Assembly (NCBI GenBank): GCA_947184155.2
Contig: CAMXCT020001862.1
Location: forward strand, 1-64,000
DNA length: 64,000 bases
Direction of reading: 5' to 3'
Source of the DNA: Cladocopium goreaui
Lineage: Eukaryota > Sar > Dinophyceae > Suessiales > Symbiodiniaceae
The translations under genes were made by a program, and so were the position numbers. Of this stretch, positions 5,490 through 33,978 are shown piece by piece. The notes below the pieces were generated by a model. The model saw nothing but the letters and a program-made list of their open reading frames with translations. It was not told the DNA's origin and did no database searches. Each line of letters opens with the position of its first letter. Position 1 is the first letter of the stretch.

Positions 5490-8400
5490 CTAAAATTGAC
5501 CCACTCTTCCTGGCACAGTGTAGCTGTTCCAACAAGTGCAGTGTACTGGTTAATCACCCTGCCTCCCATAGTACTCTGAATGCGCTTGAACGCTCCGACT
5601 GGGGAGCCCACCTAATTGAAGGAAAAACTACAGCGCTGGGTCTGCTCCTGTATGGTAAATATACCCGTAGTCATCAAGGGTGGACCCCAGTAGAGGAACT
5701 TATAGGCACACACGCCATTAACCCCAAAGCCATGTCCAAAGCTAACCATCGGCTTGCCCTCTTCGCCACACCTGCTCACTCTGTAGTGCAAAGAAGCCTT
5801 GCCAATAACTGTTTTATTCTGTCCCTTAATATTTACCAAAGTACATACTTTGGTTTCACTCCGGACGACATCAATTTATACCAACAACGCTCTGCGAAAC
5901 TTATTCTTGGCAGACCATGGCTGGCCGCACGGTACCTCCCACACATATTTCGGTGGTTAGGTATTGCTCCTGCACTAGACCCAGCGGTCACACTCACCGC
6001 AGCGTGCTTGGGTTATTGGCTTAGACAGAATGGCTCTACCGCCTTTCTCTCACCGGGGTACCCGGATGTAGGGACAAGGCAAGGAGCGGTTGTCCAACGC
6101 ATTTTCCGCACATGGATTCCCCTGCTCGGAATTGACACAGTCGGCAACTTGTTACGCATAATTGCAGGACACAACACCAGGAAACAACACTTCCAATTCC
6201 TCCGCCAGCTGAAACTCAGACTTTACGAAGCCATCCAAGTGCATGCACTGCAATATCTACAGTCTAGAGTTAGCTTGCAGCTTCTACCAGGCGGGGTATC
6301 GTGGGCTTGGTTGACCCAGTTAGCCACAGTGCCTAAACTTGCTGTTAATGGAGTTGCACGCTTTGCTGTCTTGCGGTGGGCGGTGAATGAGGATGACGAT
6401 GAATGCCTGCGGCTTCGACTTGCAGGCTCACTGCAGGCTGAGCAGCCATGCCAACTCTGTGGAATTCCTACCCGGCTGTACCCACTTGGACTCAATTTTG
6501 CACCAGCTTGTGAGAAATGCTGCCATGACCATGATATTAACGCTACCACTCTGTACAGCGGTGAGAGATGGGGGATCCCGACCGCATCCCCCTGGCATGC
6601 CATCGCAGAATCTGCTCGGGGATCTTTTCATATTCCTGCCTCATGGCGTGACCGTGCACGAGATCTAGCCCCCTGTGTAGCGTGCGGACATGGAGACAAT
6701 TCCTCTCAACACTGGGCTCGATTCTGCATAGTGCCTGTACTAGTTGCCAACGTTTTGTCACCTTCCCCCAACCCAGTGAAATCGTTGGACCAACTCGCCC
6801 GAGTCAACACAGCTGGATGCGTGATCGCGAGCCACATTCTGCATCAGTTCCGCCGACTCTTGCTTGAGCATGGAGGCATGCAACATGCGCCATCTTCAGT
6901 TCCCCTAAGTGTCCCTGAATGGCTAACCCGCCTACATGACAATGCTCTACAGGCAATCCCAACTCGATTCCTCCCGGAGCTTGTCTCTCCCGTCAGACCC
7001 CAGAGTGCAGGCGCAGACAACCCAAACCATCCTTGCTACATGCAAACCGCCGCCAACGAAGCAGTTACTCTCCACTCTGCAGCACTTCCTGATCTAGTTT
7101 GCACAGCTACTCAACTCATTGCCCCGGATCAGCCTATCGCTGTGCTCCCCCTTGGACATCCATGGCTTAGCCTCATTGCCCCAGCTCGAGCCCGGGTCGC
7201 TGGATTCCGCCCTAATGCTAAAATTGTACCAGCCTGCCCCAACTCGCCTGATTCCTTCTGTACTGTGACAGCTCTTCAATCCATCAGTCCTAATGAGTTG
7301 ATCTTAGCAATCCCTCCCGGTGATACACCATCCGAACCCTCGATACAGATCGTAGGCCAATTCGATGGCAGCTGTATGCACGAAGATGAATTAGGAGGAG
7401 CTGGCTATGTCATCTATGTAATAGAAGGTGGTCGGTCTCGCGTTATTGCATGTCGGTCAGTCGCTCTGCCACATTGTTCAGATAATATAGAAGCAGAAAT
7501 CATGGCCTGTTTGTATCTTGTTGAAGAAGTTGCTGTTGTCGTCAAGCAGCGTTTATCGAGCCGCGGCCTCACGCCCAAGGTAGTCATCCAAGGGGACATT
7601 CTTCCGGTCATTAAGTACTTTCAATTTGCAGGCCGTCTCCGGAGGATAGATATGCACCAACCATTGGAAAGCATTCGTTCAACCGTAAGTCTGCATCTCC
7701 CGAGTAGTTTATTCATATACCTGCCGAGAGTGGCCAACAGCATAGCAGATGACTTGGCTGGACAAGCCACCCAGTTCCTGTTGGCTAAATATAGGAGCAA
7801 CCCTGCTACCTTCAATCGGAATACTGGACCGGTGTCCATTAAACCATCATTCCCAACGGCCCTCTTCCAGGTCGGAGGCTTCCACATTCAGAGTTTTGAT
7901 CAACCCTGGAGCCAGCCCATACTTACTCTAGTAGAGAGGCCCAGTATCGATCACGGTCTTCTCCGAAAACACGTGACCCTCCACCCCCATCACCGCCAGC
8001 TGATTGAATCCTATCTCTCCCCGTGTCTACCGCAAAACTGCAGTATTGAAATTGACTACTCCCCCAAAGCTGCTGACAACCACGGACGAAAATATTGTTG
8101 CACCATAGGAGGCCAGCGACTACCACGAGCTGCCAGGCTGTTATTGTTCGGACAGAATCACTGCGAAATTGACCTCAAGGGATCGTTTTATGAACTTGTT
8201 CGACGCCTGGGACTACGTTTTGCGCCCGACTTTGTACCCCTCCCAACCATCGATGAGTTCCGCGCGCAGCTAGCTCGAGACCCCTATATTCGAAAAGTTG
8301 AAGCAGTCTGCCCTGACACCATCAAGCAACTCCCATTGAGAATTATCAATAGCTCCCTTGCTACTACATACCGATATCTAAGCTCTCTGGTTGATGACTC

Positions 8401-8929
8401 CCCCAGTGCGAGTGTCAGCGCAATCCTCTGCCAACTCGAGTCTTTGAGTACAACCCTGACTACTCAGTTGCTACCGCGTTTCCGCCCAGAGTTCCTGGTC
8501 AACCATAACGACAGCGCTTTTCGATTGCTAGAACATTTTGAAGCCACAATTGTCGAGGACACCATTCGTGCCCTTATTGCTCGCCACCCAACACAATCCT
8601 TGGTGTGGCTACACGATGGTTTCTTAGTTGCTCCCCCGCCTCCTGAACAAATGGTAAGGCAGATCGAGAAGGAAGTTCTGTCCAATCATCAGCTTTACTT
8701 TGGTCAAACATGGTTTAAAGTCACCTCCCTTAGCACGGCACGCAATGCATACGTAGACACCCTCAAGCATACCGCCAGTAGCCATACCCTATCCCTCACC
8801 CGTCGTGCACCCCACAGCTCCCAACGTAAGCAGCGCAGTGCTCAAGGATCGCCGCACGTCTGTGCCACGCCCTTGGAGGCCCTTTCCAAACTGCGTGCTC
8901 GACGCGAACGCCCGACGGGAGGGAGTTAA
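5465..8929 (+). CDS. Zinc-finger, RNase H and A-family-polymerase-like domains of the LINE-like element
   Basis: The frame is open from 5465; the first good ATG is at 5732, from which residues are counted (1065 aa). It probably continues the RT after a frameshift. Cys pairs at 240/243 and 260/263 precede a zinc-knuckle-like C315-x2-C318-x8-H327-x4-C332, typical downstream of LINE RTs. RNase H follows: QFDGS (Asp545), NIEAEI (Glu589), QGD (Asp622) and NSIADDLAGQA (Asp673/674). A further domain (~785-1000) has three motifs in A-family/T7-like order: CEIDLKGSFYEL (Asp814), DTIKQLPLRIINSS (Lys865, Arg870) and VWLHDGFLVAP (His961-Asp962). I infer a TV-Pol-like polymerase palm; this is unusual in a LINE. 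The tail is basic and low complexity. Confidence 0.75.
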   Translation, partial: FNIFGGHLAKIDPLFLAQCSCSNKCSVLVNHPASHSTLNALERSDWGAHLIEGKTTALGLLLYGKYTRSHQGWTPVEELIGTHAINPKAMSKANHRLALFATPAHSVVQRSLANNCFILSLNIYQSTYFGFTPDDINLYQQRSAKLILGRPWLAARYLPHIFRWLGIAPALDPAVTLTAACLGYWLRQNGSTAFLSPGYPDVGTRQGAVVQRIFRTWIPLLGIDTVGNLLRIIAGHNTRKQHFQFLRQLKLRLYEAIQVHALQYLQSRVSLQLLPGGVSWAWLTQLATVPKLAVNGVARFAVLRWAVNEDDDECLRLRLAGSLQAEQPCQLCGIPTRLYPLGLNFAPACEKCCHDHDINATTLYSGERWGIPTASPWHAIAESARGSFHIPASWRDRARDLAPCVACGHGDNSSQHWARFCIVPVLVANVLSPSPNPVKSLDQLARVNTAGCVIASHILHQFRRLLLEHGGMQHAPSSVPLSVPEWLTRLHDNALQAIPTRFLPELVSPVRPQSAGADNPNHPCYMQTAANEAVTLHSAALPDLVCTATQLIAPDQPIAVLPLGHPWLSLIAPARARVAGFRPNAKIVPACPNSPDSFCTVTALQSISPNELILAIPPGDTPSEPSIQIVGQFDGSCMHEDELGGAGYVIYVIEGGRSRVIACRSVALPHCSDNIEAEIMACLYLVEEVAVVVKQRLSSRGLTPKVVIQGDILPVIKYFQFAGRLRRIDMHQPLESIRSTVSLHLPSSLFIYLPRVANSIADDLAGQATQFLLAKYRSNPATFNRNTGPVSIKPSFPTALFQVGGFHIQSFDQPWSQPILTLVERPSIDHGLLRKHVTLHPHHRQLIESYLSPCLPQNCSIEIDYSPKAADNHGRKYCCTIGGQRLPRAARLLLFGQNHCEIDLKGSFYELVRRLGLRFAPDFVPLPTIDEFRAQLARDPYIRKVEAVCPDTIKQLPLRIINSSLATTYRYLSSLVDDSPSASVSAILCQLESLSTTLTTQLLPRFRPEFLVNHNDSAFRLLEHFEATIVEDTIRALIARHPTQSLVWLHDGFLVAPPPPEQMVRQIEKEVLSNHQLYFGQTWFKVTSLSTARNAYVDTLKHTASSHTLSLTRRAPHSSQRKQRSAQGSPHVCATPLEALSKLRARRERPTGGS

Positions 8930-9549
8930 AGCCAAGACCAACCCCAAGACCAACGGCCTGCCACTGCCCAGGCAGCTTTAGGCTGCTGCAACGTAGTTAT
9001 TGCTGATTGAGATCTCCTGTGACATCCGAGTAGCCCTCATCAGCTCACTACCTTATTTGTACCCACCCCCTGCCAATTTAGTTCTCATACCTCATGAACA
9101 CTGGTCAGTCCAGTGGGGGGGGCTCCCAGGGGTACCCTGGGTAGCTCTCCCCATCTGTGCAAGACCCATGAGGATATCGTAATCCTAAACCACTAGTCTC
9201 GGGTAGCCAAAGACCCATTCCATCATTGAGCAAACTAGCCCAAAGTGTTACATGCGCACCAGCTTTCACCTGGAGGACTTTCTAATATAGGCGACTTGTT
9301 GCGACCCACTAATGATAGGGCACTTCAAAGGGATTAAGTGGTCCTACAGAGAGGACCCAGGTCCAGCCGCTCGCGGAAACTCAGCTTAGCCTAAATATCA
9401 ATCGGCAACGCTATTAGAGTGCCAGGCTGTGGTAACTGCTCAACACGACCATGTCCACCGCACAGTTGGCCAGAAGTCCATCCCGCAGTATAGCTCCACT
9501 AGGTTTTGACCTCCTGTTTGCTTTTTTCTGGGAGTCCAGAGGGAATCAG
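8930..9549 (+). other. Putative 3' untranslated region of the LINE-like element
   Basis: No convincing ORF is present. The stretch contains the near-palindrome CCCAGGGGTACCCTGGG at 9125-9141, related to the palindromes of the following spacer. Confidence 0.45.
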
Positions 9550-9597
9550 CTTTCCACCCTGGGGAAATGGTGGAAAGTGGGAAAAACCAAAAAAAAA
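9550..9597 (+). repeat. Hairpin plus A-rich tract, candidate 3' end of the LINE-like element
   Basis: CTTTCCACC (9550-9558) and GGTGGAAAG (9569-9577) form a perfect 9-bp stem with a 10-base loop. They are followed within 15 bases by an A-rich tract (9589-9597). A 3' hairpin plus A tail is a common LINE 3'-end arrangement, so I take this as the likely element end. Confidence 0.4.
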
Positions 9598-10154
9598 TAA
9601 ATCCACTACGATACTCTCTGTACTCCAGCTCCTTAGCAATCACAGGCATTGTGAAGCATCGTGTGCATTTTTGCCCTAAGAGGATGGACGAGCGGATAGA
9701 GATCATCACTATGCAACTGCCATGCGACTATTTCTATTCCCAAGGGTACCTTGGGTAATGGAAACAGTTTCTCAGTGACCTCCATCGAGCGGCTAAGGCT
9801 CATTCGGACTGATATAAACTACGTAAAAAGCCGTAGTCACCTGTTGCTGTCTTTGAATCCCGTTTTCTGTCGGTCCGTAGGTATGTCCTGTACCATGCCA
9901 CATTCCACGATCCTCCGATCTACATGCGCATTGTACCCCACGACACAATTACAAGCTTCTAGGTTAGTTTTTGGAGCCATTTGCTTCGGGTCGTCCTACT
10001 CGAGTACTGTACCAATGGTTAGGTGTAGCAGTTGACGCTGAGCAATCTTGCCCCTCGGCATTACTTGCCACCTACATTGTTTCCTTTTCGAATGAAGCGT
10101 CTCGTAGTAAAAACGAGTGGATAACACTTCCCTGTCCACGTTCAGATGCCAACA

Positions 10155-10312
10155 AATGCTGGGTAGTTACGGATGATTCGCCTGTCCCAGGAAAAGATAT
10201 ATCTTCTCCGCTCCAACCATATTAGTTACCATCAATGCTGGGTAGTTACGGATGATTCGCCTGTCCCAGGAAAAGATATATCTTCTCCGCTCCAACCATA
10301 TTAGTTACCATC
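10155..10312. repeat. Perfect or near-perfect 79-bp tandem duplication
   Basis: The 79-base unit at 10155-10233 (starting AATGCTGGGTAGTTACGG) is repeated immediately at 10234-10312 with essentially no difference, which indicates a recent duplication. Confidence 0.85.
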
Positions 10313-10864
10313 AATGCACTACCCAAGCGCTCAACCCCTCATCTCCCACATTGTAGCTCACCCTGCGAGTGGATGTTGTAAACTGGCCCTGTTCCCAGAA
10401 ATAACTGTTGCCCAATTGTAATTAGTCCAGTTTACCACATCAAAGAGGGCCTGGTTCCCGATAGTTATAGCCCTGTTGGCAGCATCGCTAGGCTGAGCAA
10501 CGCTTATGCTTAGGGTCATTCTCCCATCATATCATCTTGCCAACTAGCGTACTATCTTACCTTAAGTCGTAGTACTATCATCCACGTGGCTATAAGAAAT
10601 TCCGTCGAACTATCCAATGAATGAAGGTTGCTCCCGGGTGTAGGACATCACTTCCCGCATCACACCGCTGAAGATCCAGGGCCATGCACCACCGACGCAG
10701 GACGAAGAAGTACCACGATGACGCCTCCCTCGTGCAGTATAATTGAGCCGGTAGGACATTCAGTGCCGCTAGCTTCCAGTGGATAGTGCTCTCGCCGCCC
10801 ATTGCACCTCATACTCAGAGCTTAATAGAGCCTAGGGTGCTAGCAGTTTAGGACAGCTGCTGTT

Positions 10865-11805
10865 CCCAAGGGCACCTTGGGTAATGGCGAGTTTCTCACT
10901 ACGACACTAAAATGCTGTACACTGTTCCAAACCGATGCTATCTTGGTGTTCTGTACTTAAGGCGCGCTGAAATAGCCTCTGATTTGCCGCATATAGATGA
11001 GGCATGCAGCTGTGAAGCTCTCATTTGTCAGCAAGTCTTGGCGCTGATGTCGTCGACGGAGTCTCATTAGAGTGCCAGGCACAGAAAGAAGCTCTGGCCA
11101 CGGGGAAATCTCCAGTTACCGTAGTAGAATCGAAATCACTATCTGTTCAAAGGGAAGACGTTGAACATGCTGTTTTTCCTAGCCCCCTTTTGTGCCCGAT
11201 GACTATCCTGTACTGTATGACCTCAATGTGATTATTTTTGGGTTCGAACATATCCATTTGTAGAGTATTGATTGCGGGCCTCGTGGTAGTAATGAGTGAC
11301 CAGTTAATTGTTCAATAATTATGCAATAACTTTCAGAAGTCAATGAACCCTTCAGACATGCTGCCAACAGCTGCAGGAAAGACTGGTGCTTCCTAATCTC
11401 TGGTAACACAGCTCCAGCAAGCGTCTTGCCAGTAACTATCATGGCCTGTTTCCTTGTCTAGTTGCAAAGCTCAACAAATCGATTGCCGACTAATTTGCCT
11501 CTTGGTAACCTGGAGGTACCATGCAGGACCTCAGCTACTGGACAATGACAAGGCAGCGTGTGCAACAGACATCGTGAAGCAACGTTTGCAACATTTTGCC
11601 CTTAGAGGACAAAGAAATACCACGATGACGCCTCCCTCGTGCGTACCTTGGGTAATGGCGAGTCTAACTACTACACTACAATGCGGTACACTGTTCCAAG
11701 CCGGTGCTATCTTAGTGTTCTGTACTGAAGTAGCGCTGAAATAGCCTTTGCCTCGCCCCATCTAGATGGCGGCATGCAGTGGTGAAGCCCTCCTTGGTCA
11801 GCAAG
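10865..11805. repeat. Degenerate direct repeat, two copies about 780 bp apart
   Basis: The segment at about 10865-11035 (palindrome, TAATGGCGAG, an ACTGTTCCAA segment, GCTGAAATAGCC, GGCATGCAG, GTCAGCAAG) recurs in the same order at about 11644-11805 with scattered substitutions and small indels. A separate shared block around CACGATGACGCCTCCCTCGTGC occurs at about 10715 and 11620. Confidence 0.7.
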
Positions 11806-12731
11806 CCCATTAGCGCAACTGCTGACCACGTTCGTGCCTTACTCCAGCAGATCTTTCTTTGTCCACCCTGTCAAACTTTTGACCGTGAGATTGCAGTACC
11901 AGTTGGATGAAACTATGAATGCCCTGGACGACACAGGGTTTGATGACATAGGGTTTTCCGGCACTCCATCATCTATCTAAGTCGTCCCGCATGCCCTCAC
12001 CCCCTGCTGTGCCCCCCACATCGGTAGGAACATGACACATGTGTCTGTTATTCCTCTACGGTTCCCAAGGGCACCTTGGGTAATGGTGAGGGCTCAGCTC
12101 CGTTTTCACCCTACCAGGTACTCATCTCACATGGTTCATGCCCTCGTGACTGCCACCTTCTTCCCAATCTCCCGACAGCTATCTATACTCTCAATAATGT
12201 GTACTCCTTGCTGATGATGCTCCTCAGTGTCCATCTCTTTTAGCATATCTTACACAGATAGCCACCCCCGCCTATCATGTGCTACTGCCCCACCACTTGC
12301 CTTGCCCCTTGCTACTCCCTCCTATGTCATGAATCTACTCCTGAACCACAATGAACCGTCCCTCCCATCCTGTCACCGGTCATATGTTGTACATATTTCC
12401 TACTGTTGCAGTGTCTGGTATTTTGTTCACTCTGCCTGGACTGAACATGATTCACTGTCTCCGTCAGCAGCCATTGGTTCGAACTGTGAGGACACCACAC
12501 CTGCATAAGCCAGGGTTGACTGGATCCTCATTTTTATCCAACTTCTAATTTGCTCGCCCGTTCATACTTTCAAGCCGACACGGGGTCCTCGTTGTTTGGC
12601 CGCTGCCCGCCTTTCGTTGTTTGGCCGCTGCCACGCAATTGCGAGTGGTTCCTGTCGTTTGGTCTTACTAGACGCCGTGCAATTGCCTCCACTTCGGCGA
12701 GTGCTGCCACTGCAGGGTACCTGTTGCTGGT

Positions 12732-14303
12732 ATGCCGAGGCAAAACCCTTTCCCGTCTGGCCAAATCAGTGTTTCTGATCAACACCTACTGGACATATCG
12801 GCTGGAATGAATTGGGACATGCCAGCAGCCAGCAGCGTTCGTTTTCTTGCAGTGAGGGGCACAATATGGGTAGGAGATTGCCAGACAACATATAATTTCA
12901 CGTTGGTAGAATACCACTTGCATATCGACGAGGTGCCATGGATCATCTTTTCGACCCTTGCCGACGCCCTTGAGAAAGAGTTTGACCCTGCCTTCTGGGA
13001 TACCGTTAATTATGGCCGAAAAGAGCGGTGGGGTTTCCTTGAACCACCCTGGGATGGAAAAGTCTACGGTGCTGCACCACAGTATGCCCAAGTCCGACTA
13101 TCCATCTTTAATCGTGACGCTCACACCATGCGTGTTGTGCAACCGTTTGTGTGGAACCATACTCACCTGAAAGTTCACCCGAACGGAGCAATGATTTTCC
13201 ATGATCAAAAACGATTAGCCTTCCTGCTGCCTTTGATAGTAGAAGCCCATGAGTTGCTGCCGCCTAAGCCATTGTTCTGGGTCAATAAAGACAATACCAT
13301 CCCATTGTGGAGAACCACCCTGTGGACGCATGACGAAACCATACAGTGGTTAGCTGAGACCGGAGAGCCGTACCCGCAGGAACTGCGAGATGAACTTCAG
13401 CCACGCATTGACCAACATAAGTCTTCGCAACATGCGAAACGGGCACTGCCTCCGCCTCCGCCGCTACCGACCAGGTGGACGGAGCGATCCGCAGCAAAAC
13501 AGCCAGTACCAAAAATGCAAGCAGATGCTCCACAGGACCCTAAATGTACTCAGAGCACGCCACAGCAAGTGGCTGACCGAGAGCGGCAATACATGGAACT
13601 GCAGTCTATTATTCATCAAGCAAACCAACAAACGTTGGCAGATAGCCGACCAGCGGCGACCAGACAGACCCACAAACCAGCCAATTTGCTGGCCGCAAGT
13701 CAACAAAGTACAGACAATACAGCAACCGCCGCATCGTCCAATCCCAGTACAGGCGTGGTGGCAGAAGCTCTAACCCCGCAGCAAAGCAAGCCACCTGACA
13801 AAATCAGTGCACAATCATTATTTCACAGAAGACCAGGCCCACCGTCGGCCCTTCCTGCGAACAAAGCGCAAACGGATACCCCGGGTACCGGCGTGTTATC
13901 CTCTGACTCTCACTCTGCAACTCACAGCAAAGATGATGAGCAACAACAACCTCCGGCACAGCTCGCAGCCCACGACGACACATCAACAGAAGAATCGTCG
14001 CCTGCAAATACACCCAAAGCATCGCCAGAGACTCAAGCAACTGACGCTGCTGGTGCTAGCAGCCCTGAGCCCGCCAGTGACTCCATGCAGGACGTCGACC
14101 TCGCCGCAGCGGACATCCCAACGTTACAGAACATGGAAAAGACAGCCTGTGAAAGAGTGGCCTCCTATGAAACGCGACTCCTCAATGCCCGCGAGCACCT
14201 TACTCGCATTAGAAAGCGCCTTAAAAGAATGCAAGATGACCACTCACCAGGCACTCCGCAACCCTCTCCTGTTGCAGATATGGAAATGGAAATCATTGAC
14301 TGA
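12732..14303 (+). CDS. Unidentified 523-aa protein with globular N-terminus and coiled-coil C-terminus
   Basis: The frame starts at an ATG and is intronless. I do not recognise a family. Residues ~30-215 look globular and aromatic-rich (many Trp, Tyr and Phe, for example WVGDCQTTYNF and ERWGFLEPPWDG). Residues ~240-460 are Gln/Pro/Ser/Thr-rich and probably disordered. The last ~60 residues (LQNMEKTACERV onward) have heptad-like charged helices consistent with a coiled coil. It is the first gene of a same-strand cluster with the 2015-aa helicase and 720-aa protein, with the same C-rich third positions. By position and shape it could be a Gag/ORF1-like structural protein of a large element, but that is only inference. 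Confidence 0.6.
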   Translation: MPRQNPFPSGQISVSDQHLLDISAGMNWDMPAASSVRFLAVRGTIWVGDCQTTYNFTLVEYHLHIDEVPWIIFSTLADALEKEFDPAFWDTVNYGRKERWGFLEPPWDGKVYGAAPQYAQVRLSIFNRDAHTMRVVQPFVWNHTHLKVHPNGAMIFHDQKRLAFLLPLIVEAHELLPPKPLFWVNKDNTIPLWRTTLWTHDETIQWLAETGEPYPQELRDELQPRIDQHKSSQHAKRALPPPPPLPTRWTERSAAKQPVPKMQADAPQDPKCTQSTPQQVADRERQYMELQSIIHQANQQTLADSRPAATRQTHKPANLLAASQQSTDNTATAASSNPSTGVVAEALTPQQSKPPDKISAQSLFHRRPGPPSALPANKAQTDTPGTGVLSSDSHSATHSKDDEQQQPPAQLAAHDDTSTEESSPANTPKASPETQATDAAGASSPEPASDSMQDVDLAAADIPTLQNMEKTACERVASYETRLLNAREHLTRIRKRLKRMQDDHSPGTPQPSPVADMEMEIID

Positions 14304-14941: not shown

Positions 14942-17900
14942 ATGCTGCAACAGCTAATGACACCAAATAGGTTCATTTCCTTGACGTCGCCTGACCCTGA
15001 TGATTCAGAGACAGACATCGAACCAGCAGAGCCAACCGCCCCAGATAACACAGTCGAGGATGTGTCAATGCACAGTGACACAGAATACTTTGACGCCCTC
15101 GAGACAGATGATGACGTTCCATATTTCCAACAAGGGACTGAGCCTCCCCCAAAGGAGAAGTGGGAAATTGCCGCACCTATCGATTTCTTGAATGTCCAAG
15201 AGGTTACACAGTTAAGCCACCAGCTTGACCAACTGTTCCTCTCGCAAAAAGAAGTTGAGACCCCGCTCGGCATGGACGACATAAAACAAAGGTGGAAATG
15301 GGACGATGTCGGCTCCTGTCGAATGCCCCGGTCACCTCTGACATACCCTGCACTCATGGTGGACGAAGGGAACGGCATCCAACGCCCCGCAGCCAGCCAG
15401 GTCCATCATAGAACGCTCTTCCAGTGGATAACAGATAATCTCTCATGGTTACCTCAGTATGCCACCGTCTATGTTTATGTGGACAACCGCAAACTGTCAG
15501 GCACTGATCCTCCAGCCTACTGGCCGCATTTCGCACCCTGGATCAAAGGCCGATGTACAGTGACTGGCCCTTACCGGGAGAAAACTACTGCGATCCATTT
15601 TCCCATTCATGCTGACACAGGTTTGCATCAGGTCCATTATACCTGGGCTGGTGCTGCAGCTCTGGAGGCGCTGTGTTTAATGTTCCCCACTGTGAATTTT
15701 GCTCTCATCGACTCTGACTGCGTGCCGACCTCATTGTTCGAAATAGCCGAGCTAGTCAATCTCATGACGGATAAGGCAAGCAGAGCCGCAGCAATGCAAC
15801 ATAACACAATGGCCAGCTCTAACCAGTGCCCTCCAGCAGTCCTCCTTGCCACAGAAGCCAAAGCCGAACTTAATGCCGGCTTGATCATTGTGACAGGGCA
15901 CATCCCGACCGAGGCAACTGATGTAGAAATGGCCCGAGCAACCTCGGAAGCATGTATGCCACCAGCCCCTGCCCAAAGCTCCTCTCCGAGTGCTGCACCC
16001 GCCCCAAAGGCACGACGAATAGCCCACCCTGCCAATCGCACAGCAGATGACTGGGTTACCGCACTCCAGGATAGCAGAGCCAGTTTCCTAGCTACAACCG
16101 CTGTGCCAGAAGACCCTGCGGAAGCAATGAGGGGAGGACTGCTTCTCACCCCCCTACTCGGCTGTAGGGCTAGAACCCCACTTGACTGGACACATGCATG
16201 GGCAATGTTGGGCGAATGGGCGGGAGCCATTGCATTCCCCATCCCGGAGCGAGGAGAATGGCCGCGTCACGGGGATGGCCGATACCTTAGACCGGACTTT
16301 GTCGAGCGGACCCCGCCATTCCTTACCTGGGCACGCCCCATTTTCGAACAAGGTGCACTCTCCCCTCTGTCAGTTTTCCCAGCCGACTTCCCCATACTGT
16401 GTCTTCCAGGAGACAAATTGTTCCAAAGCAAGGAGTTAACCATAGGGTATAGCCTGCCGCCAATAGTTCACGCCTTCCATGGGAGCAAAGTAGGCCTAGG
16501 ACAACAACTCCAACAGTGGCTAAACAAAGGGCTGCAACCGCTTGCTGTGTCGCTCATAGGAGTGGACGAGGAACCACCTTTGTGGACACACCCCACAGGC
16601 TGCGATTTTGTTAGAGGGAGTAAACTAATCGCCAAGCCGCATGTCCTGCAAAACAGAAGCCTTACCAAGCTGCAGGTGTTGCTTCTTCAGAGTCTTTGGA
16701 CACCGGTGGAAGCCCCCAACAACAGCAATGACCATACACCTTGGTCCAAGACTTGCGATCCTGCCATTGTTTTCTGCGGTCAGCACGCGAGCCTCCAGCT
16801 CCCCAGTGCCCCAATCCTCCCTCTGCTGGAAGCGCTGCAACGGCGACTGGGCATTGACCCTGGCAACGCAGAACTGGCAATCAACGAAGTGCTTGCTAGC
16901 CATACTGACCCCCAATACACCGATTGGAAGATCACTGTCATGGATAACACCTCCTGGCAACTCAATGACGCTGACCCAGGGTCCCTGGAAGTTCAGTGCA
17001 CTGGGTTGGGTGGAGGAGAACTTGATGAAGACTGGGACGTACTGCTAGCCTGCAAAAAGGAAGCACATGTTTACGGGCCATCCCTTAGCAAACAGGACGA
17101 TTGGAATGCAAGAGCTGGCACAGTAGCAGGCACTGCTCACACACAAGAATACTTGCTCCTGCACATCGCCATGTTTCCCATAGGTGCACACTTCTGGTGC
17201 CGCGTCTTAGGAATGCCCAGTGCGAACCAATTGCAAGCGCAGATCATCAGTCGGGCCATGAAACTGTTGCGCTTCTGTCCCATCATCCCAGCACACAGGA
17301 AACCGCCGTGGCCCGGGTACATACATGGCCTGCGACTTTTCACTAAGTTGCTAGTTGCACATCCGCTAGTCGGAGTATGTCTGCCCCCTGAAATCCGCCC
17401 AGTCGATCTTCTGAGATTAACAGGATACATGGTAGGCTCCATCTACATTCGAGGGCACAGCGCTGGCTCGTACGCAGGAATGGTATGGGAAACTATCCTC
17501 TCAGAATTCCCAGACGTTGGTGGCAAAACCGTGCTAGCAGCCATTGCGCTACCACCATCGCTTCTCACGACATGCAATTTATCTCAGCTGAGAGAGATCC
17601 ACCTCATTCACCATGCAGATGACAGGCTCTGCGTATGGAACCCGTCGAACTATGACCTCAAGCTGCTTAGGCAACGGGGCTTTAAAATTACGCATATCAC
17701 AGGATGGAGAGCGTACCTCGGTACTGCACAACATAACTACTCGCATTGGACAAGAGTTGCCCTCCCAGAAGGACGACCAGATATGGAGCAGTTAGAAGGT
17801 ACCCCTGGAGTGCTCCCCTTCGAAGTGTACTCGCAGGCTCCCCTCCGTCTGATCTCATGGTGCAGCTTTGAGCTCCCAAGAACTGCCAGAAAACTCCTGC

Positions 17901-20900
17901 GTGAATTAGCGGAAATGTGCGAGCTACCTGAAACCACGACACAGGCACTTGTTACACACATTGCTGCCCATAATTCAGAGGTCAAAACTGAGCAAGAGGC
18001 AACCCAATACTTAGCCACGTTGGCAACAGTCACCATCTCCTCAAGGACCAAGTTGCTCAACTATACCACCATGGTACAACATTTCCTTGGCACCTTGCAA
18101 TTGCCCCTGGCTGTCTACATGTTAGACTACTACTTGCCCATGCTCAGTCCAAATGAAGGCTATAATGAAACAGGGTTAACAATGCAAAGTGCAGGCCCTA
18201 TCCGGCAACCATCGCAACCCATCGCCCTTGAATTCCTCTTCAAAGGCAGCGAGTTTGGACACTGGAAAGTTAAAGGCGGACAGGATGCATTCGCGTTCCG
18301 ACACCCCAGCCTGGGCAAAACTGAAGTGTTCAGCCTGCTAGCTAGTGATGCGCACCATCACAAAGTCAGCCCCATTGGCACGGGTAGGCTCATTGCCATG
18401 GTGGGTACAGCGGACGCACTAGCTTATGATGGAGATGACCTTCAAATCCTTTTTGGCTTGGTCCTTGCCATCACGCCACGCGCAGCCAAAAAAAAGGATG
18501 AACTGGCTGCCTCACGCATATACAGACAGTGCAACCCTAAATTCATCGAAGTTGCTTTCCTCTCAGGACCGGCCATTGAGTTTTTTGCAAAGGAACAACT
18601 GGAAGCCCTCCAAGACCTGTATAGTGCCTCCGGCCAGTACCTGGACCCCATTGATGCGACCGTCCAGGGACAGAAAAGCCCGGTCCCCCAGACCTTCTTT
18701 CTAAATACAATGTGGATGTTCGGATGTACTAAGCCTACCCGAGAGCTTACCGCAGTCGCGCAAACCCCCCCGTGCAGGTACCACCTATTAGGCATCTACA
18801 ATGTCCAAACGGCAGTAGAAGGAATGGAGGGCAACAAAAGATCACATTTCTTGCATTTGTGTGGCCAGTTGCTCCGCCTAGTACTAATTCCATGTCACGT
18901 GGAGGGCGAGCTTCACCCTTGGACTCGCTCCACTGCACTGTCCTTTGCCGCTGAGCTTGACGGACACGTTTTAGGCACACTCTGCGCAGTGACAATGGCG
19001 TTACTCACCAACCGGCTAGATTTGTGCACCCAAGGGCTTTTCGGAGCAGGCAAGTCGAAATCGATGGCAATCCTTATCCTGGCCTTGATTGAAATCGACA
19101 CTACCGACAGCCTCAAAATATTGTTCATTTGCAAAGAGAACTCCGGCACTCGATCCTTTGCTGACCTCCTCCTATGGCTCGACCCCCCGTCGGGGGTGTT
19201 TGGGCGCGTAGGTAGGCTGGTAGGAGACCAAGAGCGCAACAAAAGCAGTTACTCGCACACGAAATTTGATATCCACCCGAGAGAAAGAAGGCAAATGCTG
19301 AACAAGTGTCAGTTAATATTAGCCACTGGGGGAACGGTAGCCCAGGATCTTACCATGCAATGGTCCACAATGAGTGGTTTTATGCAAGAGCTCTCCCTCC
19401 TGGTCATTGATGAAGGCCAGCAGTATGGCACTGACCGCGAAATTGCAGTTATCAGCCTGCTGAAACAGCAACCCCTGGTCCTGTGGACAGGAGACTCTGA
19501 GCAGACACCTGGCGGTATTGATCGGGCAGCTCGCAACGCAAAACGGTCACGACAACTACTGTTAGCTAAAAAGCATGGCCTGCGAAGCGACCGCAACTAC
19601 TACATGCCAGCCAACCTTGCCGATGCAATGATCCGACTGCTAGATGGTTCGGCGAATGAAGGCTTAACGGTTCTTAGTCAAATCCTCAAACGAGGCCAGT
19701 CCACATTAGGTCAGCTATGGACAAGTCACCTCTCGCCGCAGGATGAGGAAGACCTCAGGGCAGCCAGCACTGTGCTCCCAGGCCTCAAAGCCGTATTTGA
19801 AGCAGCCCAACCAAATATGCAACGACACTCCCGATTCGTAGACTCGGAACTGCTGGCGGGTACCGCTCTCAATTTTCCACGGTCTCTTGTGCGCCTTGCC
19901 TGGATTTTGCAGCATGCCGCTACCCTCCTGCCCATGGCTGGTGACATACAAGCAGTCTTAAACTCCCAGACCGCCGGCGTAAGCGACATCCATGCCTGGG
20001 GGTTAATGCTTCCGTCCAGCTCCAGGGTTAGTCCTGTGACATACCATGCAGTGGTTGCAGTTAGATATCCTAATCTTTGCAGGAAGATCAATGGCCTATG
20101 GGAACTAGGAAGTTTTGCTTCGGGAGGCCTTCCCGACAAGCCACCAGGGTTCCAACTAGTGCTCTGGGATACTAATGCTAGGATTAACGGTTTGGTAGCG
20201 ACGGATTTAGAAACTCTTGTGTCAGAAGTACTCAGCCCCTTTCCTCACAATGCTGGATTTGCAGATGGACTTTTCACAATGACCACAGCAACTGATCATA
20301 AGAACAATTTGAACCGCTCCGTGCTCAAAAGGGATTATGTTCGCACCCTGCGTGTCGAAACAATAGCCAATTCGGCAGGAGGAACAGCGCAGGTATCAAT
20401 CGTAGCTCAGCCCAGTATTGGATTTCTCAACACTAAGTATTACTCCAATGGCTCTCCTACAGAAGATACTGAAGACTGCCTTGGCAGAATCACTGTCGGA
20501 CTCACCCGGTCCAAATCGTTAACCCTGCTGGTCTCCCCGCTAGACATGATGGGGCTCATGGGCATGGCACAGGTGATTGCTGCAATTGCATATGGCATCC
20601 GGGGCCTACGGAGAGGAGAAACGACATGGAGCATGCCAAAATTTGACCCTGACCCAGTCCAAGAGAATTTAGCACAGCTAAGCCGGTGGTCACTCAATTC
20701 GGCACCAACCTGGGAGTACCCTCCCCTCGCAATTGCCAATCAATACTACAATCAGCAAGCTGACGAAGTGAAGCGAGCAAGATATCGGCTGATATTGGTG
20801 CGAGGGTCCGACCTTAGATGGCTGAACAGGGAGCGCTTCCAAGAAGTTCAAGCAGGGTTACGAGCTCAACACAAGTGGCTCCCCGAGCAAAATCTCCCTT

Positions 20901-20989
20901 TCTCTGAAGTTGTTCTATATGCCTACGCTGCTGATCGCACACACTTTCCCACCTACGTGTGCCTACTGCCTACCCTCAGGACTGTATAA
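14942..20989 (+). CDS. Giant multidomain protein: GT-like region, alpha/beta-hydrolase, SF1 helicase
   Basis: I start at the ATG at 14942 (2015 aa); the frame is open slightly further upstream without another ATG. Residues ~1-80 are acidic. Residues ~170-275 include an ALIDSDCVP segment (DxD-like, 257-259), and HAFHGSK lies near 510; together they recall glycosyltransferases (weak). Residues ~800-940 look like an alpha/beta-hydrolase: RGHSAGSYAG (nucleophile elbow, Ser840), HHADD (Asp893/894) and HNYSHW (His935). Residues ~1330-1870 form an SF1, Upf1-like helicase: GLFGAGKS (1365-1372), VIDEGQQ (DEGQ, 1490-1493), WTGDSEQTP (motif III) and VGLTRSK (motif VI, ~1852). The functions are ATP-driven nucleic-acid unwinding plus a possible ester or peptide hydrolase. 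This fusion is unfamiliar to me. It overlaps the next gene. Confidence 0.75.
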   Translation: MLQQLMTPNRFISLTSPDPDDSETDIEPAEPTAPDNTVEDVSMHSDTEYFDALETDDDVPYFQQGTEPPPKEKWEIAAPIDFLNVQEVTQLSHQLDQLFLSQKEVETPLGMDDIKQRWKWDDVGSCRMPRSPLTYPALMVDEGNGIQRPAASQVHHRTLFQWITDNLSWLPQYATVYVYVDNRKLSGTDPPAYWPHFAPWIKGRCTVTGPYREKTTAIHFPIHADTGLHQVHYTWAGAAALEALCLMFPTVNFALIDSDCVPTSLFEIAELVNLMTDKASRAAAMQHNTMASSNQCPPAVLLATEAKAELNAGLIIVTGHIPTEATDVEMARATSEACMPPAPAQSSSPSAAPAPKARRIAHPANRTADDWVTALQDSRASFLATTAVPEDPAEAMRGGLLLTPLLGCRARTPLDWTHAWAMLGEWAGAIAFPIPERGEWPRHGDGRYLRPDFVERTPPFLTWARPIFEQGALSPLSVFPADFPILCLPGDKLFQSKELTIGYSLPPIVHAFHGSKVGLGQQLQQWLNKGLQPLAVSLIGVDEEPPLWTHPTGCDFVRGSKLIAKPHVLQNRSLTKLQVLLLQSLWTPVEAPNNSNDHTPWSKTCDPAIVFCGQHASLQLPSAPILPLLEALQRRLGIDPGNAELAINEVLASHTDPQYTDWKITVMDNTSWQLNDADPGSLEVQCTGLGGGELDEDWDVLLACKKEAHVYGPSLSKQDDWNARAGTVAGTAHTQEYLLLHIAMFPIGAHFWCRVLGMPSANQLQAQIISRAMKLLRFCPIIPAHRKPPWPGYIHGLRLFTKLLVAHPLVGVCLPPEIRPVDLLRLTGYMVGSIYIRGHSAGSYAGMVWETILSEFPDVGGKTVLAAIALPPSLLTTCNLSQLREIHLIHHADDRLCVWNPSNYDLKLLRQRGFKITHITGWRAYLGTAQHNYSHWTRVALPEGRPDMEQLEGTPGVLPFEVYSQAPLRLISWCSFELPRTARKLLRELAEMCELPETTTQALVTHIAAHNSEVKTEQEATQYLATLATVTISSRTKLLNYTTMVQHFLGTLQLPLAVYMLDYYLPMLSPNEGYNETGLTMQSAGPIRQPSQPIALEFLFKGSEFGHWKVKGGQDAFAFRHPSLGKTEVFSLLASDAHHHKVSPIGTGRLIAMVGTADALAYDGDDLQILFGLVLAITPRAAKKKDELAASRIYRQCNPKFIEVAFLSGPAIEFFAKEQLEALQDLYSASGQYLDPIDATVQGQKSPVPQTFFLNTMWMFGCTKPTRELTAVAQTPPCRYHLLGIYNVQTAVEGMEGNKRSHFLHLCGQLLRLVLIPCHVEGELHPWTRSTALSFAAELDGHVLGTLCAVTMALLTNRLDLCTQGLFGAGKSKSMAILILALIEIDTTDSLKILFICKENSGTRSFADLLLWLDPPSGVFGRVGRLVGDQERNKSSYSHTKFDIHPRERRQMLNKCQLILATGGTVAQDLTMQWSTMSGFMQELSLLVIDEGQQYGTDREIAVISLLKQQPLVLWTGDSEQTPGGIDRAARNAKRSRQLLLAKKHGLRSDRNYYMPANLADAMIRLLDGSANEGLTVLSQILKRGQSTLGQLWTSHLSPQDEEDLRAASTVLPGLKAVFEAAQPNMQRHSRFVDSELLAGTALNFPRSLVRLAWILQHAATLLPMAGDIQAVLNSQTAGVSDIHAWGLMLPSSSRVSPVTYHAVVAVRYPNLCRKINGLWELGSFASGGLPDKPPGFQLVLWDTNARINGLVATDLETLVSEVLSPFPHNAGFADGLFTMTTATDHKNNLNRSVLKRDYVRTLRVETIANSAGGTAQVSIVAQPSIGFLNTKYYSNGSPTEDTEDCLGRITVGLTRSKSLTLLVSPLDMMGLMGMAQVIAAIAYGIRGLRRGETTWSMPKFDPDPVQENLAQLSRWSLNSAPTWEYPPLAIANQYYNQQADEVKRARYRLILVRGSDLRWLNRERFQEVQAGLRAQHKWLPEQNLPFSEVVLYAYAADRTHFPTYVCLLPTLRTV

Positions 20990-23081
20990 AGCACGCACCG
21001 GGCACATAGTAGCACAGACGGGCCCAGACCAGGAGATCCTGTCCCTGCCCGGCATATACTTCTTTGATGGATGGCGATTACACCCGAAGCTGCCAATCCC
21101 AGACCACTTGCCACGCGCAAAAGAGGCGCCAGTCCAGGGTACCGCTCTCAATGCACCTGCACCAGATACGGAACCCAAACGGTCGCCAGAAGAAGAGGCA
21201 CGAGATATCCTCGCAGTAGCTGCCAAGAACCAGCCCGAAGATGGGCCAAGCACAAGAAGAGCAGCTGTTCGCGCATGCAAGTACTTACGGGCCATGGTCA
21301 GCCAATATGAAACTACCATCCAAGCCGTGCACAGTGCCGCCCGCACCCACACGCAAAGAAGCAAAGGCACGGTGGGACCTGCGGTTGACTATCGCCCACA
21401 AGGAGAAGCCCTCCCAGTCATCTCGGCGGACCTAACCTCCGAATTGTTGCATTGTTTATCCACGCTCCCAGACCCATGGCCCCTAGCCCTAGCTAAGATC
21501 ACCATAGACATGGAGAAACCGAGCCAATGGGTCTCAAAGTTGTGCAGACTTTACTTTGCTGACGAGTATGCCAAGCGAACAGTTGGATTGCCCTCGCGTA
21601 GGCATGTTCCGGACATCGCGGGTGCACTACGAGCAGTTCAAGCCATCCTCCCTAAACTCGAAGTCAAAATGATTGAGTTCTTAGCTGAATGGATGGTAAC
21701 TCTTCTAATGCCAGCCTCGCACGTATTGGAAGTGAGGGCACCTCACCTTTCCTTTATGATGCTAAAGGAATACTGGTTTAGAGAACTGTATCCAGGCCTG
21801 AAAGTCACAGCGTCCTTCGACCGCTCTGAATCATACACCAGAGTGATCGATGGCCAAGTAAGATGTATCACGCCTGAAGTCAAGCCGCAGAATTTGCAGG
21901 TTATCTGGAATGTGCAGTTCATCACAGTCTTTGTGCCGGCATGGATGATCCCGCCCGTCTACCATAGCCTGCGCAGAGAAAGCATTAAAACTACGAGTTC
22001 TGCAAGTCCCATAGGAGTCCAGTCAGTCCGTCCCACCTGGTTTGAAGACACAACACCCAGGGACACTACATCCCAGCAACCTCAAGACCCTCAAAAAGAG
22101 CAACCCCAGCCACTGCATGGGCTGAAGTTAGTCATCAAAGAAGAGGTGCTACCAGCGACTGACCAACCACAATTCCAGTCACTTGAGCTGCTGGCTGGCA
22201 GAGGTCTCTTAGCACCTGACACATGGAAGTGCAAACGTGCACAAGTCAGCCTCAAAGCAACTATTGATGTCCCAATGTTGGGTACAATCATAGAGGAAAA
22301 TGGTGACGGACTCCTGGAAGATTCCCATATGCCTGTGGGATGGCCACTTCACATCGATGGCGCTGTCAGACAATGCTGTATTCACAGAGCTGCTAGCTTA
22401 CAAGAATTAGATGATATGCTCAAAGAATATGACATGAAAAGGGATTCAGTAGAAATCAACCGTGACGCGCCCCAATGGTCCCATCATGCAGTATGGAACC
22501 GAAAGTATATGGAACCGAGACCAGGATACACACTGGAGCAACTATGGACCGACTCCGAACCTGCCATAAGCAAAAAAACGACCACGTCATATGATGTACA
22601 AACAAATGACGTGCAACGTGCAGTAGCGGCCATTCAGCATTTCCCATCCCCCGTTCCCCCTGATAGCCCCTTCATACGAACACTAGGGACACCGGCTGCC
22701 CTAAAAGCCCCACCGCAGACGGACACCCTAGCGCAAAGAGCTCTGGAAGAATGGGAACGCACTTTGTGTGAAAACAAGGCAGTGGCAATCCTCGCCGAGA
22801 TCCAAGCCGGCCGACCAACTATAATCCACAAAGATGGGGGTGAAATGCTCATTGCCATTGTCCTTGATAGGCCACTGGCGGAAGCGAAAGCACTAGTGGA
22901 TGACCCTGCGGCATTCACTCGCGAAATGACGCGGATCCTACGTGACAAACAAACCCACCCGCTTATCGCCCAAATGATGAAACCAGCGGCAAGCAGTGAT
23001 CCACCCCCCGCTGCTGCTGCAGCCAGTGGTGCTAGTAGCAGTGGAGAGCCTCGCGCTGCCTCACACGAGCAGTTCCAGTGA
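20919..23081 (+). CDS. Unidentified 720-aa protein overlapping the helicase gene
   Basis: The first ATG in frame is at 20919, within the last 71 bases of the helicase gene in the +1 frame, so it is either a separately started protein or a frameshifted extension of the helicase. I recognise no family. Visible features are an early LPGIYFFDGWRLHP block (~46-59), an acidic/Pro linker, a helical region (~85-300), a globular middle with WFRELYPGLKVTASFDR and VIWNVQFITVFVPAWM (~285-350), a Pro/Gln linker (~370-405), and a C-terminal helical region ending in an Ala/Ser-rich tail. Composition matches its upstream neighbours, so it belongs to the same unit. Confidence 0.6.
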   Translation: MPTLLIAHTFPPTCAYCLPSGLYKARTGHIVAQTGPDQEILSLPGIYFFDGWRLHPKLPIPDHLPRAKEAPVQGTALNAPAPDTEPKRSPEEEARDILAVAAKNQPEDGPSTRRAAVRACKYLRAMVSQYETTIQAVHSAARTHTQRSKGTVGPAVDYRPQGEALPVISADLTSELLHCLSTLPDPWPLALAKITIDMEKPSQWVSKLCRLYFADEYAKRTVGLPSRRHVPDIAGALRAVQAILPKLEVKMIEFLAEWMVTLLMPASHVLEVRAPHLSFMMLKEYWFRELYPGLKVTASFDRSESYTRVIDGQVRCITPEVKPQNLQVIWNVQFITVFVPAWMIPPVYHSLRRESIKTTSSASPIGVQSVRPTWFEDTTPRDTTSQQPQDPQKEQPQPLHGLKLVIKEEVLPATDQPQFQSLELLAGRGLLAPDTWKCKRAQVSLKATIDVPMLGTIIEENGDGLLEDSHMPVGWPLHIDGAVRQCCIHRAASLQELDDMLKEYDMKRDSVEINRDAPQWSHHAVWNRKYMEPRPGYTLEQLWTDSEPAISKKTTTSYDVQTNDVQRAVAAIQHFPSPVPPDSPFIRTLGTPAALKAPPQTDTLAQRALEEWERTLCENKAVAILAEIQAGRPTIIHKDGGEMLIAIVLDRPLAEAKALVDDPAAFTREMTRILRDKQTHPLIAQMMKPAASSDPPPAAAAASGASSSGEPRAASHEQFQ

Positions 23082-23402: not shown

Positions 23403-23858
23403 ATGCCACCTGACCATATGAGTTCCGTGCAACCAAGTGAAGTAGTATACCTGCCTCAAGAACCCCAGACTCACAATGAGGCACAGGATCTCCTCCTTTT
23501 GCAGGACTATGTGCACAGACTGACGAATACTCTCAGAACTTTGGAAGACACCCACGCCGTATTGCAGCAAACTGAACTCCTTGCAGGTGTTATCAACGAG
23601 CAAGACTGCAGAGACATTCGCACAGCCTGCTGTTGCATAAGAAGTCTGCGCATTCGAGTCGAAGCCCGTGCCAATGTCACAGAACGTGAAGTGATAAGTC
23701 GACAGCTACAGCTCATGCATGCGAGCGTACAGCATTACCGGACTGAGGACCTTAACACAGCTGACACAAGTTGCCTGTCCAGAACCTCTTTTGAACACTT
23801 TGAGGATAGACCTGGTCCCTGGGCAGAGAAAAACGCTCGTATTCCTACACCAATGTAA
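23403..23858 (+). CDS. Small helical protein, 151 aa, unknown function
   Basis: The frame starts at an ATG. Residues ~25-115 are rich in Leu, Glu, Gln and Arg with heptad-like spacing (QDYVHRLTNTLRTLEDTH and RSLRIRVEARANVTEREV), suggesting a helical bundle or coiled coil. The Cys cluster ACCCIRS lies near 78. It is on the same strand as the large genes and ~320 bases downstream. No family is recognised. It could be the last gene of the large cluster. Confidence 0.45.
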   Translation: MPPDHMSSVQPSEVVYLPQEPQTHNEAQDLLLLQDYVHRLTNTLRTLEDTHAVLQQTELLAGVINEQDCRDIRTACCCIRSLRIRVEARANVTEREVISRQLQLMHASVQHYRTEDLNTADTSCLSRTSFEHFEDRPGPWAEKNARIPTPM

Positions 23859-24319: not shown

Positions 24320-24857
24320 AGGCTGCTCGGTGTGATCTCGGGGATCCTGGCTGGGGGGATCCCTGGTTTCTGCATTGAGCCTTGTTGCTTCCCACACCCT
24401 TCAAGTGGCCCATGGTGATTTCGTCTTTGGTCTTGTTGTTGTTTAATTTTATGGGCCTGCCAACATGACACACAAGTTGTCATCTGCATGCGCTGAGATG
24501 ATAACAAGCTATCACCTCTCGCCTCAACAGATCTGTTTCACCCATAAACTGGAATCTGTCACGTCACGGTTTTGTGGCCTTGTGGCTGTTTTTCTTTTGT
24601 GTGGTTTTTGTTTGTTGTTTGGGTTTGTTTTGGTGTTTTTGTTTTGCTTTGGTTTTTTGTTTTTCGGTTTTTGTTCTCCGTTTTTGAACCCTGGAACGTG
24701 ACAAAGCCTTTGGACTATGTATCGGTCCTCTTCCAGTTTACTTTTGCGGCCACTACAGCATCGGCCCCTGTGCGAATTAAATAATTAATCTCATTTGCAA
24801 CAGGCTTGGATAGCTGTTGAACGACCTGGCGGAAGCCACATGGCGTTGGACGGAAAA
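24131..24857 (+). repeat. Dispersed repeat family, copy 1 (ends in a short A-tract)
   Basis: This copy shares with 36184-36880 an ATGATT-GGAAAAGCA start, GATCTCGGGGATCCTGGC followed by a G-run and GATCCCTGGTTTC, a long T/G-rich stretch, TGGACTATGTA-C-GGTCC, and a tail AACGACCTGGCG-AAGCCA-GGCGTTGGAC followed by As. The A-ended tail suggests a SINE-like or LINE-derived non-autonomous element. It abuts the copia LTR directly. Confidence 0.65.
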
Positions 24858-25382
24858 AATCGTGAGAAGATCGTAGAATTCATTTTGTGACTTCGGAAGA
24901 AGGAACTTTGTTTGACATTGATCGGAGAAGTTTAGTTCGTTTTGTCTCTCAATGATGATAGCGAGAGCAACGTTCTGAAAGGCATTCAGAACCAGAGTTG
25001 CCAACAGATCTGAGGGAGACATCATGAATCATGTTTTGGTGCTTGAAATGTTTCAACGTTTTTCAAACACTCAAACTTATTTAAACAAACAAACCATGTC
25101 TTGATGTAAAGACTTTTTGTCACGACATGTGTTTTTGATCGCTTTTGTGAAGTTGACAGAAAGATGTCAACTGGCGACTCCGCATCATTTTGTGTCAAGG
25201 CGTGACACACCAACAAGAACCATAGCGACATGAGCAAACATCTTGTTCCTGTGCTTGTGTGTGTAAAAGTGGCTGAGCTCTGGGAGTGGTTGACTTGGTT
25301 GCGTGGACGGTCTTAGTGAGTTAAGGACGACGTCCTGGACGCTGACCCAAGTAGAGGTTTCGAAGGCCTGTAGCCTTCCGCA
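24858..25382 (+). repeat. 5' LTR of the copia element (525 bp present, outer end truncated)
   Basis: Identical to 34324-34848 except for three substitutions. It ends in CA directly before the primer binding site. Its left edge meets the A-tail of the dispersed repeat instead of a TG terminus, so the outer U3 part is missing if the 3' LTR starts at 33988. Confidence 0.85.
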
Positions 25383-25394
25383 TGGTAGCGGAGC
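25383..25394 (+). promoter_or_regulatory. Primer binding site, initiator-tRNA-Met type
   Basis: TGGTAGCGGAGC immediately follows the CA end of the 5' LTR. It resembles the complement of the initiator tRNA-Met 3' end used by many copia elements. The same 12-mer starts the second copia element at 38230. Confidence 0.75.
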
Positions 25395-25427
25395 TGCCTG
25401 CTTGCAGCTCGTAGAGGCGTAGTAGGA

Positions 25428-32325: not shown

Positions 32326-32351
32326 AACTGTGTTGTTCGGAACATTCGAAC

Positions 32352-33778: not shown

Positions 33779-33978
33779 TGACACTGTGATGGTGGTTGGA
33801 TCTATACAGGATCTCATTCTATGTGGACAACTGTAGTTTGCAGGATTGTTGAACTGGATGAGTGGTCACTATGTAGCCCTTCGGCTAAGGGCATCTTTAT
33901 GGATTGGCCTGTCGAGCTTGGGCGATATGTGCTGAAGTCTGGATGGGTTACAGCTATACATGGAATGGAGTTCATCTC

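What the first reader, a model, noticed from the sequence alone, without database searches (positions are those of the whole stretch)
14942..20989. Giant protein joining an alpha/beta-hydrolase to an SF1 helicase
One 2015-aa intronless frame contains a Ser-Asp-His alpha/beta-hydrolase signature (GHSAG, HADD, NYSHW) and a full set of SF1 helicase motifs (GxxGxGKS, DEGQ, GDSEQ, LTRSK), preceded by a DxD/HGSK region recalling glycosyltransferases. I know of no family with this arrangement. Long uninterrupted coding suggests selection. Beside other intronless large genes and retroelements, it may be core machinery of a large mobile element or virus-like element.
Basis: partly seen in the sequence, partly recalled or inferred. 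Interest (0 to 1): 0.88.

Follow-up and report, generated by a model that had tools for sequence, protein, structure and literature searches.

The report
Giant hydrolase-helicase protein of mobile DNA
A very large, intronless, high-copy gene, probably from a dinoflagellate alga, makes one protein that joins an esterase-like enzyme to a DNA/RNA-unwinding motor, and it sits beside a methyltransferase-carrying LINE retrotransposon, hinting at an unusually large and complex selfish element.

The parts
14942..20989 (+).
20910..23081 (+). ORF encoding the C-terminal part of the same protein (homology 20967-22982); separated from the front part by a frame break near 20966 in this copy; function unknown
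   Evidence: tblastn of P0007, P0008, P0013, P0014, P0029, P0033, P0034, P0045 continues from 20965 to 20967; sequences around the break
15164..16621 (+). N-terminal conserved region (residues about 75-560) with D257-x-D259, N311, H510/G514/K516; possible but unproven GT-A glycosyltransferase
   Evidence: conservation; no Pfam or PDB match, low-confidence model
16589..17776 (+). alpha/beta-hydrolase (esterase-like) domain, residues about 550-945; triad Ser840 (17459-17461), Asp894 (17621-17623), His931 (17732-17734)
18944..20611 (+). SF1 helicase domain, residues about 1335-1890: motif I GLFGAGKS (19034-19057), II DEGQ (19409-19420), III GDSEQ (19490-19504), VI TR (20504-20509)
   Evidence: motif table, conservation, hhalign, weak sub-threshold Pfam DEAD/AAA_30/AAA_19
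12732..14303 (+). 523-aa ORF just upstream, same strand, unknown function; possibly part of the same unit
   Evidence: only a weak Pfam match (Snapin_Pallidin, E 0.081, below cut-off)
23403..23858 (+). 151-aa ORF just downstream, same strand; not searched; possibly part of the same unit
   Evidence: sequence
102..1385 (+). DNMT3-like cytosine methyltransferase ORF (ISLFDGVGSA, SPCQDLT, LENAG; motif identities recalled) of the neighbouring LINE; overlaps ORF 1252-2739 in another frame
   Evidence: phmmer: 21 of 22 PDB rows at E<=1 are DNMT3A/B/C, best E 0.12; Pfam DNA_methylase E 0.13, below cut-off
2745..8914 (+). LINE ORF2 (apurinic-type endonuclease, reverse transcriptase, RNase H-like, conserved extra C-terminal domain), with a frame break near 5477
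   Evidence: Pfam; relatives span the break
9100..12100 (+). stretch without an ORF of 150 aa between LINE ORF2 and ORF 12732, with four copies of a bulged hairpin (9125, 9739, 10865, 12064)

Best explanation
It is the front part of a giant accessory protein of about 2,700 aa carried by a high-copy mobile element of a dinoflagellate, most likely the element that also encodes the adjacent DNMT-bearing LINE. Shown here: the protein joins a serine alpha/beta-hydrolase (esterase-like) to an SF1 helicase, both with their catalytic residues conserved down to about 30% identity, and it belongs to a large family of copies, some of them decayed. Inferred: the helicase unwinds the element's RNA, or the RNA-cDNA hybrid, during reverse transcription or integration, or counters RNA-based silencing, as proposed for SF1 helicases in insect LINEs. 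The hydrolase cleaves an acyl ester on a lipid or protein and helps the element's ribonucleoprotein meet membranes or a host factor, as proposed for the esterases of rotifer Terminons. The N-terminal region may be a third enzyme. The dinoflagellate host is inferred from the LINE type. That LINE and giant ORF form one unit is inferred.
Against: Linkage with the LINE is thin: one shared contig length among 47 and 59, where chance gives 0.06-0.6. About 3.8 kb without a sizeable ORF separates them, AT skew differs between the two halves, and no target-site duplication was found. The published SymbioLINE-Dnmt description seen in passages mentions no such ORF. Foldseek gave no hit at E<=0.001, and its list is mixed; the overall model is poor (mean pLDDT 47.9). 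hhalign probabilities other than RecD's are low; RecB, also SF1, ranks only ninth, and TmcA, which I recall to hold a RecD-like domain, is not in the nine rows printed. The helicase has only sub-threshold Pfam matches and no helicase among its PDB sequence matches. The function of each domain is untested.
Confidence: 0.6

Rival explanations
1. The giant ORF (with ORFs 12732-14303 and 23403-23858) is a separate mobile or virus-derived element of about 11 kb that inserted beside the LINE by chance.
For: Only one contig length shared between the two families; different AT skew and a 3.8-kb gap between the ORF sets; insects and rotifers show that helicases and esterases occur in several element types.
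Against: No integrase, transposase, polymerase or capsid among the Pfam matches of the three large ORFs of 12.7-23.1 kb (ORF 23403-23858 was not scanned), and no terminal repeat of 30 nt or more there; same strand and same sign of GC skew as the LINE up to about 24 kb.
Confidence: 0.3
2. It is a host gene family expanded by retroposition or tandem duplication, as is common in dinoflagellates (recalled), with no role in mobility.
For: Intronless, and hundreds of members per cluster could be amplified host genes; hydrolase and helicase are ordinary cellular activities.
Against: Clusters of up to 801 members, frame breaks at different places in different copies, location next to retroelements, and no spliced-leader relict found.
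Confidence: 0.1

Closest known systems
SymbioLINE-Dnmt (de Mendoza et al. 2018, PMC5890265; passages seen)
   Same: The neighbouring unit has the same plan: a DNMT ORF upstream of an ORF with Exo_endo_phos, RVT_1 and RNase H.
   Different: The passages describe no giant hydrolase-helicase ORF; here one lies 3' of the LINE on the same strand; membership is unproven.
TRAS- and Jockey-type LINEs with SF1 helicase (Morozov et al. 2017, PMC5563155; passages seen)
   Same: LINE association of an SF1 helicase with a full set of motifs.
   Different: There the helicase is fused to ORF1 or ORF2 and is virga-like; here it sits in a separate giant protein with a hydrolase, nearest to RecD/Dda among the few controls tried.
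Terminons of rotifers (PMC6431247; passages seen)
   Same: Giant retroelements, up to 40 kb, with accessory esterase and nucleic-acid enzymes.
   Different: Those are Penelope-like, endonuclease-deficient, telomeric, and use GDSL esterases and Rep proteins; the RT next door here is a LINE with its own endonuclease, and the hydrolase is of the alpha/beta kind.
YpfH / LYPLAL1 / acyl-protein thioesterase group of alpha/beta-hydrolases
   Same: Among the nearest fold and profile matches; Ser-Asp-His in the same order (order in those enzymes recalled).
   Different: Those are chains of about 210-230 aa; here the domain is embedded in about 2,700 aa and its substrate is unknown.

Membership tests
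alpha/beta-hydrolase superfamily | alpha/beta-hydrolase fold | tested here: met
alpha/beta-hydrolase superfamily | nucleophile elbow GxSxG and Ser-Asp-His in order | tested here: met
   Ser840 34 of 34, Asp894 37 of 38, His931 40 of 40 covering sequences, query included; elbow strand-Ser-helix in the model
alpha/beta-hydrolase superfamily | hydrolytic activity | not testable with these tools
   needs purified protein
SF1 helicase | motifs I, II, III and VI in order | tested here: met
   K1371 43 of 43, E1491 37 of 37, G1517 34 of 35, D1518 35 of 35, Q1521 35 of 35, R1856 31 of 31; motif II starts D in 33 and E in 4 of 37
SF1 helicase | profile similarity to known SF1 members above controls | tested here: met
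   RecD, Dda, UvrD, Rep rank 1-4 of 27 (69.8, 15.9, 7.6, 1.5% probability); RecB only rank 9; Pfam below cut-off
SF1 helicase | two RecA-like domains in a structure | tested here: inconclusive
   only the second half (in P0045) was modelled, mean pLDDT 47.4; no SF1 match among the rows shown
glycosyltransferase (GT8-like, recalled motifs) | GT-A fold or profile match | tested here: inconclusive
   no Pfam or PDB match; WaaJ and WaaO (GT8) not among the nine rows printed of 27; model of this region mostly under pLDDT 50; a weak BFVD row, a glycosyltransferase 2-like protein at E 0.17
SymbioLINE-Dnmt | DNMT ORF upstream of endonuclease-RT-RNase H ORF | tested here: met
   for the neighbouring LINE at 102-8914, not for the giant ORF itself; the DNMT call itself rests on motifs and weak matches
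SymbioLINE-Dnmt | giant ORF is part of the unit, with conserved UTRs and target-site duplications | tested here: inconclusive
   no duplication found; the 5' end of the LINE was not located; one shared contig length
Terminon / Penelope-like element | endonuclease-deficient Penelope-type RT | tested here: not met
   the neighbouring RT ORF has Exo_endo_phos, E 1.9e-9, and RVT_1, E 6.6e-15
TRAS-type SF1H LINE | helicase fused in the LINE ORF | tested here: not met
   helicase and RT lie in separate ORFs here; no similarity between 59 LINE hits and 48 giant-family proteins at E 1e-4

The most novel reading that the evidence does not exclude
The window holds one giant non-LTR retroelement of at least 23 kb, several times the size of usual LINEs (recalled), coding for a DNMT3-like methyltransferase, an endonuclease-RT-RNase H replicase with an extra C-terminal domain, and a separate protein of about 2,700 aa fusing an N-terminal enzyme-like domain, an esterase and an SF1 helicase: a LINE that carries its own epigenetic, lipid-active and unwinding machinery.
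Probability: 0.42. Interest if true: 0.82.

Novelty: new variant of a known kind. Interest (0 to 1): 0.66.

Why it matters
SF1 helicases and esterases are each known as accessory domains of retroelements in insects and rotifers, and DNMTs in dinoflagellate LINEs. Finding the first two fused in one strongly conserved giant protein, next to the third, would point to convergent recruitment of the same tools and to a size class of LINE not described in the passages I saw. Because triad and helicase residues are nearly invariant across the 31-43 sequences that cover them, the family gives a direct enzymatic handle on what esterases do for retroelements, an open question.

Tried and rejected
Virus-like origin: three viral-contig scans (P0001, LINE RT, alignment A4) and one genome-contig scan found no relative; PHROGs gave one match at E 0.34; BFVD gave none at E<=0.001, with weak rows such as a Megaviridae glycosyltransferase 2-like protein (E 0.17) and giant-virus lipase and alpha/beta-hydrolase entries (E 1.1 and 3.0). 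Glycosyltransferase: Pfam and PDB searches of the N-terminal alignment found nothing; no GT8 protein in the nine hhalign rows printed. C-terminal part and RecA2 (model of P0045): low confidence, no usable fold match; the absence of a listed fold is not evidence of a new one. Programmed frameshift at the end of the 2,015-aa frame: rejected, because of 17 relatives printed P0002 and P0004 break before the site, 15 read past it, and P0021, P0024, P0012 and P0017 appear to break later, at different places. Polymerase-like palm in the C-terminal domain of LINE ORF2: conserved motifs but no hhalign signal to PolA, T7 gp5 or T7 RNAP. DNMT by hhalign to Dcm: only 18 columns, rank 2 of 34 behind an unrelated protein, not significant. 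Target-site duplications: longest repeat 12 nt, near chance. Spliced-leader relict: best 15 of 21 (leader sequence recalled). Rfam: none. PDB profile searches with A1 and A6: nothing relevant. NCBIfam: none. Literature searches showed no paper on this architecture in the rows listed; only the top rows of each search were seen, and the library misses most subscription journals.

Full report
CHECK OF THE OBSERVATION. The frame 14942-20989 encodes 2,015 aa, far beyond chance for its composition (about 10^-37). A search of about 5.8 billion proteins (7,992 candidates scored) returned 44 clusters at 33-99% identity, holding 3,639 member sequences, all from ENA contigs without names. A second search from P0043 added P0046, P0047 and P0048. 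The start at 14942 coincides with the first residue of P0002, P0007, P0010 and P0015. The stop at 20989 does not mark a natural end: P0007, P0008, P0013, P0014, P0029, P0033, P0034 and P0045 align up to 20965 and go on from 20967 into ORF 20910-23081, and P0008 shows a length of 2,707 aa. Other copies have breaks elsewhere, so these look like separate decays of single copies.

HELICASE. Motifs I, Ia, II, III, V and VI occur in order in the distant relatives. Counts: Lys1371 43 of 43, Glu1491 37 of 37, Gly1517 34 of 35, Asp1518 and Gln1521 35 of 35, Thr1855 and Arg1856 31 of 31; motif II begins with Asp in 33 and Glu in 4 of 37. Pfam matches are weak: DEAD 2e-4 and AAA_30 0.011 in 1 of 4 members, AAA_19 0.083 in 2 of 4, all below cut-off, and the profile finds no helicase in the PDB (2 unrelated rows at E<=10). 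In a 27-protein hhalign panel the top four are RecD (69.8%), Dda (15.9%), UvrD (7.6%) and Rep (1.5%). RecB, also SF1, is ninth; the SF2 helicase RhlB, and TmcA, which I recall to hold a RecD-like domain, are not in the nine rows printed. Seven further controls scored no higher than 20.8, against 46.1 for RecD. I take it as an SF1 helicase, nearer to the SF1B members tried.

N- AND C-TERMINAL PARTS. The N-terminal region keeps D257, D259, N311, H510, G514 and K516 in 18-23 of 20-24 covering sequences. Its resemblance to GT8 signatures is recalled only; Pfam, PDB and hhalign do not support it, and the model is too poor to decide. The C-terminal 700 aa remain unassigned.

SURROUNDINGS. Upstream on the same strand, 102-1385 has cytosine-methyltransferase motifs (recalled); phmmer against the PDB lists 22 chains at E<=1, of which 21 are DNMT3A/B/C, best E 0.12; Pfam DNA_methylase is sub-threshold at 0.13 and hhalign to E. 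coli Dcm is not significant. ORF 2667-5489 has an apurinic-type endonuclease and a reverse transcriptase, and 5732-8929 an RNase H-like domain (RVT_3, E 2.6e-4, just below its cut-off). Relatives read across the break near 5477, so they form one ORF2; the overlap of ORFs 102-1385 and 1252-2739 may be another break and was not checked against relatives. This is the SymbioLINE-Dnmt plan described for Symbiodinium (PMC5890265, passages), which is why I infer a dinoflagellate host. Downstream lies a Copia element with 98% identical repeats at 24853 and 34319.

ONE ELEMENT OR TWO. For one element: same strand, negative GC skew from 1 to 24 kb that ends near the Copia flank, one break checked in each of the two largest ORFs, and one contig length shared between the two hit lists. 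The lists hold 47 and 59 contigs; chance would give 0.06-0.6 matches for 10 to 1 Gb of searched genome, so this is only suggestive. Against: the 3.8-kb gap without a sizeable ORF, the difference in AT skew, and no duplication found. The window's own genome could not be searched, as the tool was busy at all ten tries. I put one element at 0.42.

HOW IT MIGHT WORK. Precedents: SF1 helicases within insect LINE proteins, proposed to aid reverse transcription or suppress RNA silencing (PMC5563155, PMC6338049; passages), and GDSL esterases in rotifer Terminons, suggested to help cross membranes (PMC6431247, passages). By analogy I propose that the helicase clears structured RNA or RNA-cDNA hybrids and that the hydrolase acts on an acyl ester, coupling the element's particle to membranes or a host target. 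These steps are inferred.

VERDICT. A real, conserved and unusual protein of probable mobile DNA; no entry with this fusion was found in the libraries searched here, while each of its two identified enzymes has a precedent in retroelements.

Noticed in passing
9125, 9739, 10865, 12064: Four bulged hairpins (7-bp stem, 3-nt loop, one-base 3' bulge, lower stem of 12, 8, 7 and 3 bp) with shared core CCCARGGGYACCYTGGGTA and differing but paired lower stems; the other three 7-bp hairpins of this kind on the + strand have lower stems of 0-1 bp, and none on the - strand has 4 bp or more; a partial copy of the core at 11642.
   Followed up: partly
about 7800-8830: C-terminal domain of LINE ORF2 after RNase H with conserved E.D..G.YE..R and WLHDG motifs in 40 relatives, recalling a polymerase palm; no hhalign signal to PolA, T7 gp5 or T7 RNAP.
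   Followed up: partly
24853-34618: Copia-type element with 300-nt repeat copies 98% identical (young insertion) and ORFs with zinc-knuckle, Pol_BBD (weak) and RVT_2 matches.
   Followed up: no
38306-39985: 559-aa ORF with weak Retrotran_gag_2 and zinc-knuckle similarity, possibly another Copia remnant.
   Followed up: no
10155-10317: Perfect 79-bp tandem duplication (2.1 copies) in the stretch between the LINE and ORF 12732.
   Followed up: no
59240-60130: 296-aa ORF with a weak leucine-zipper (HALZ) match, E 4.7e-5, below cut-off.
   Followed up: no
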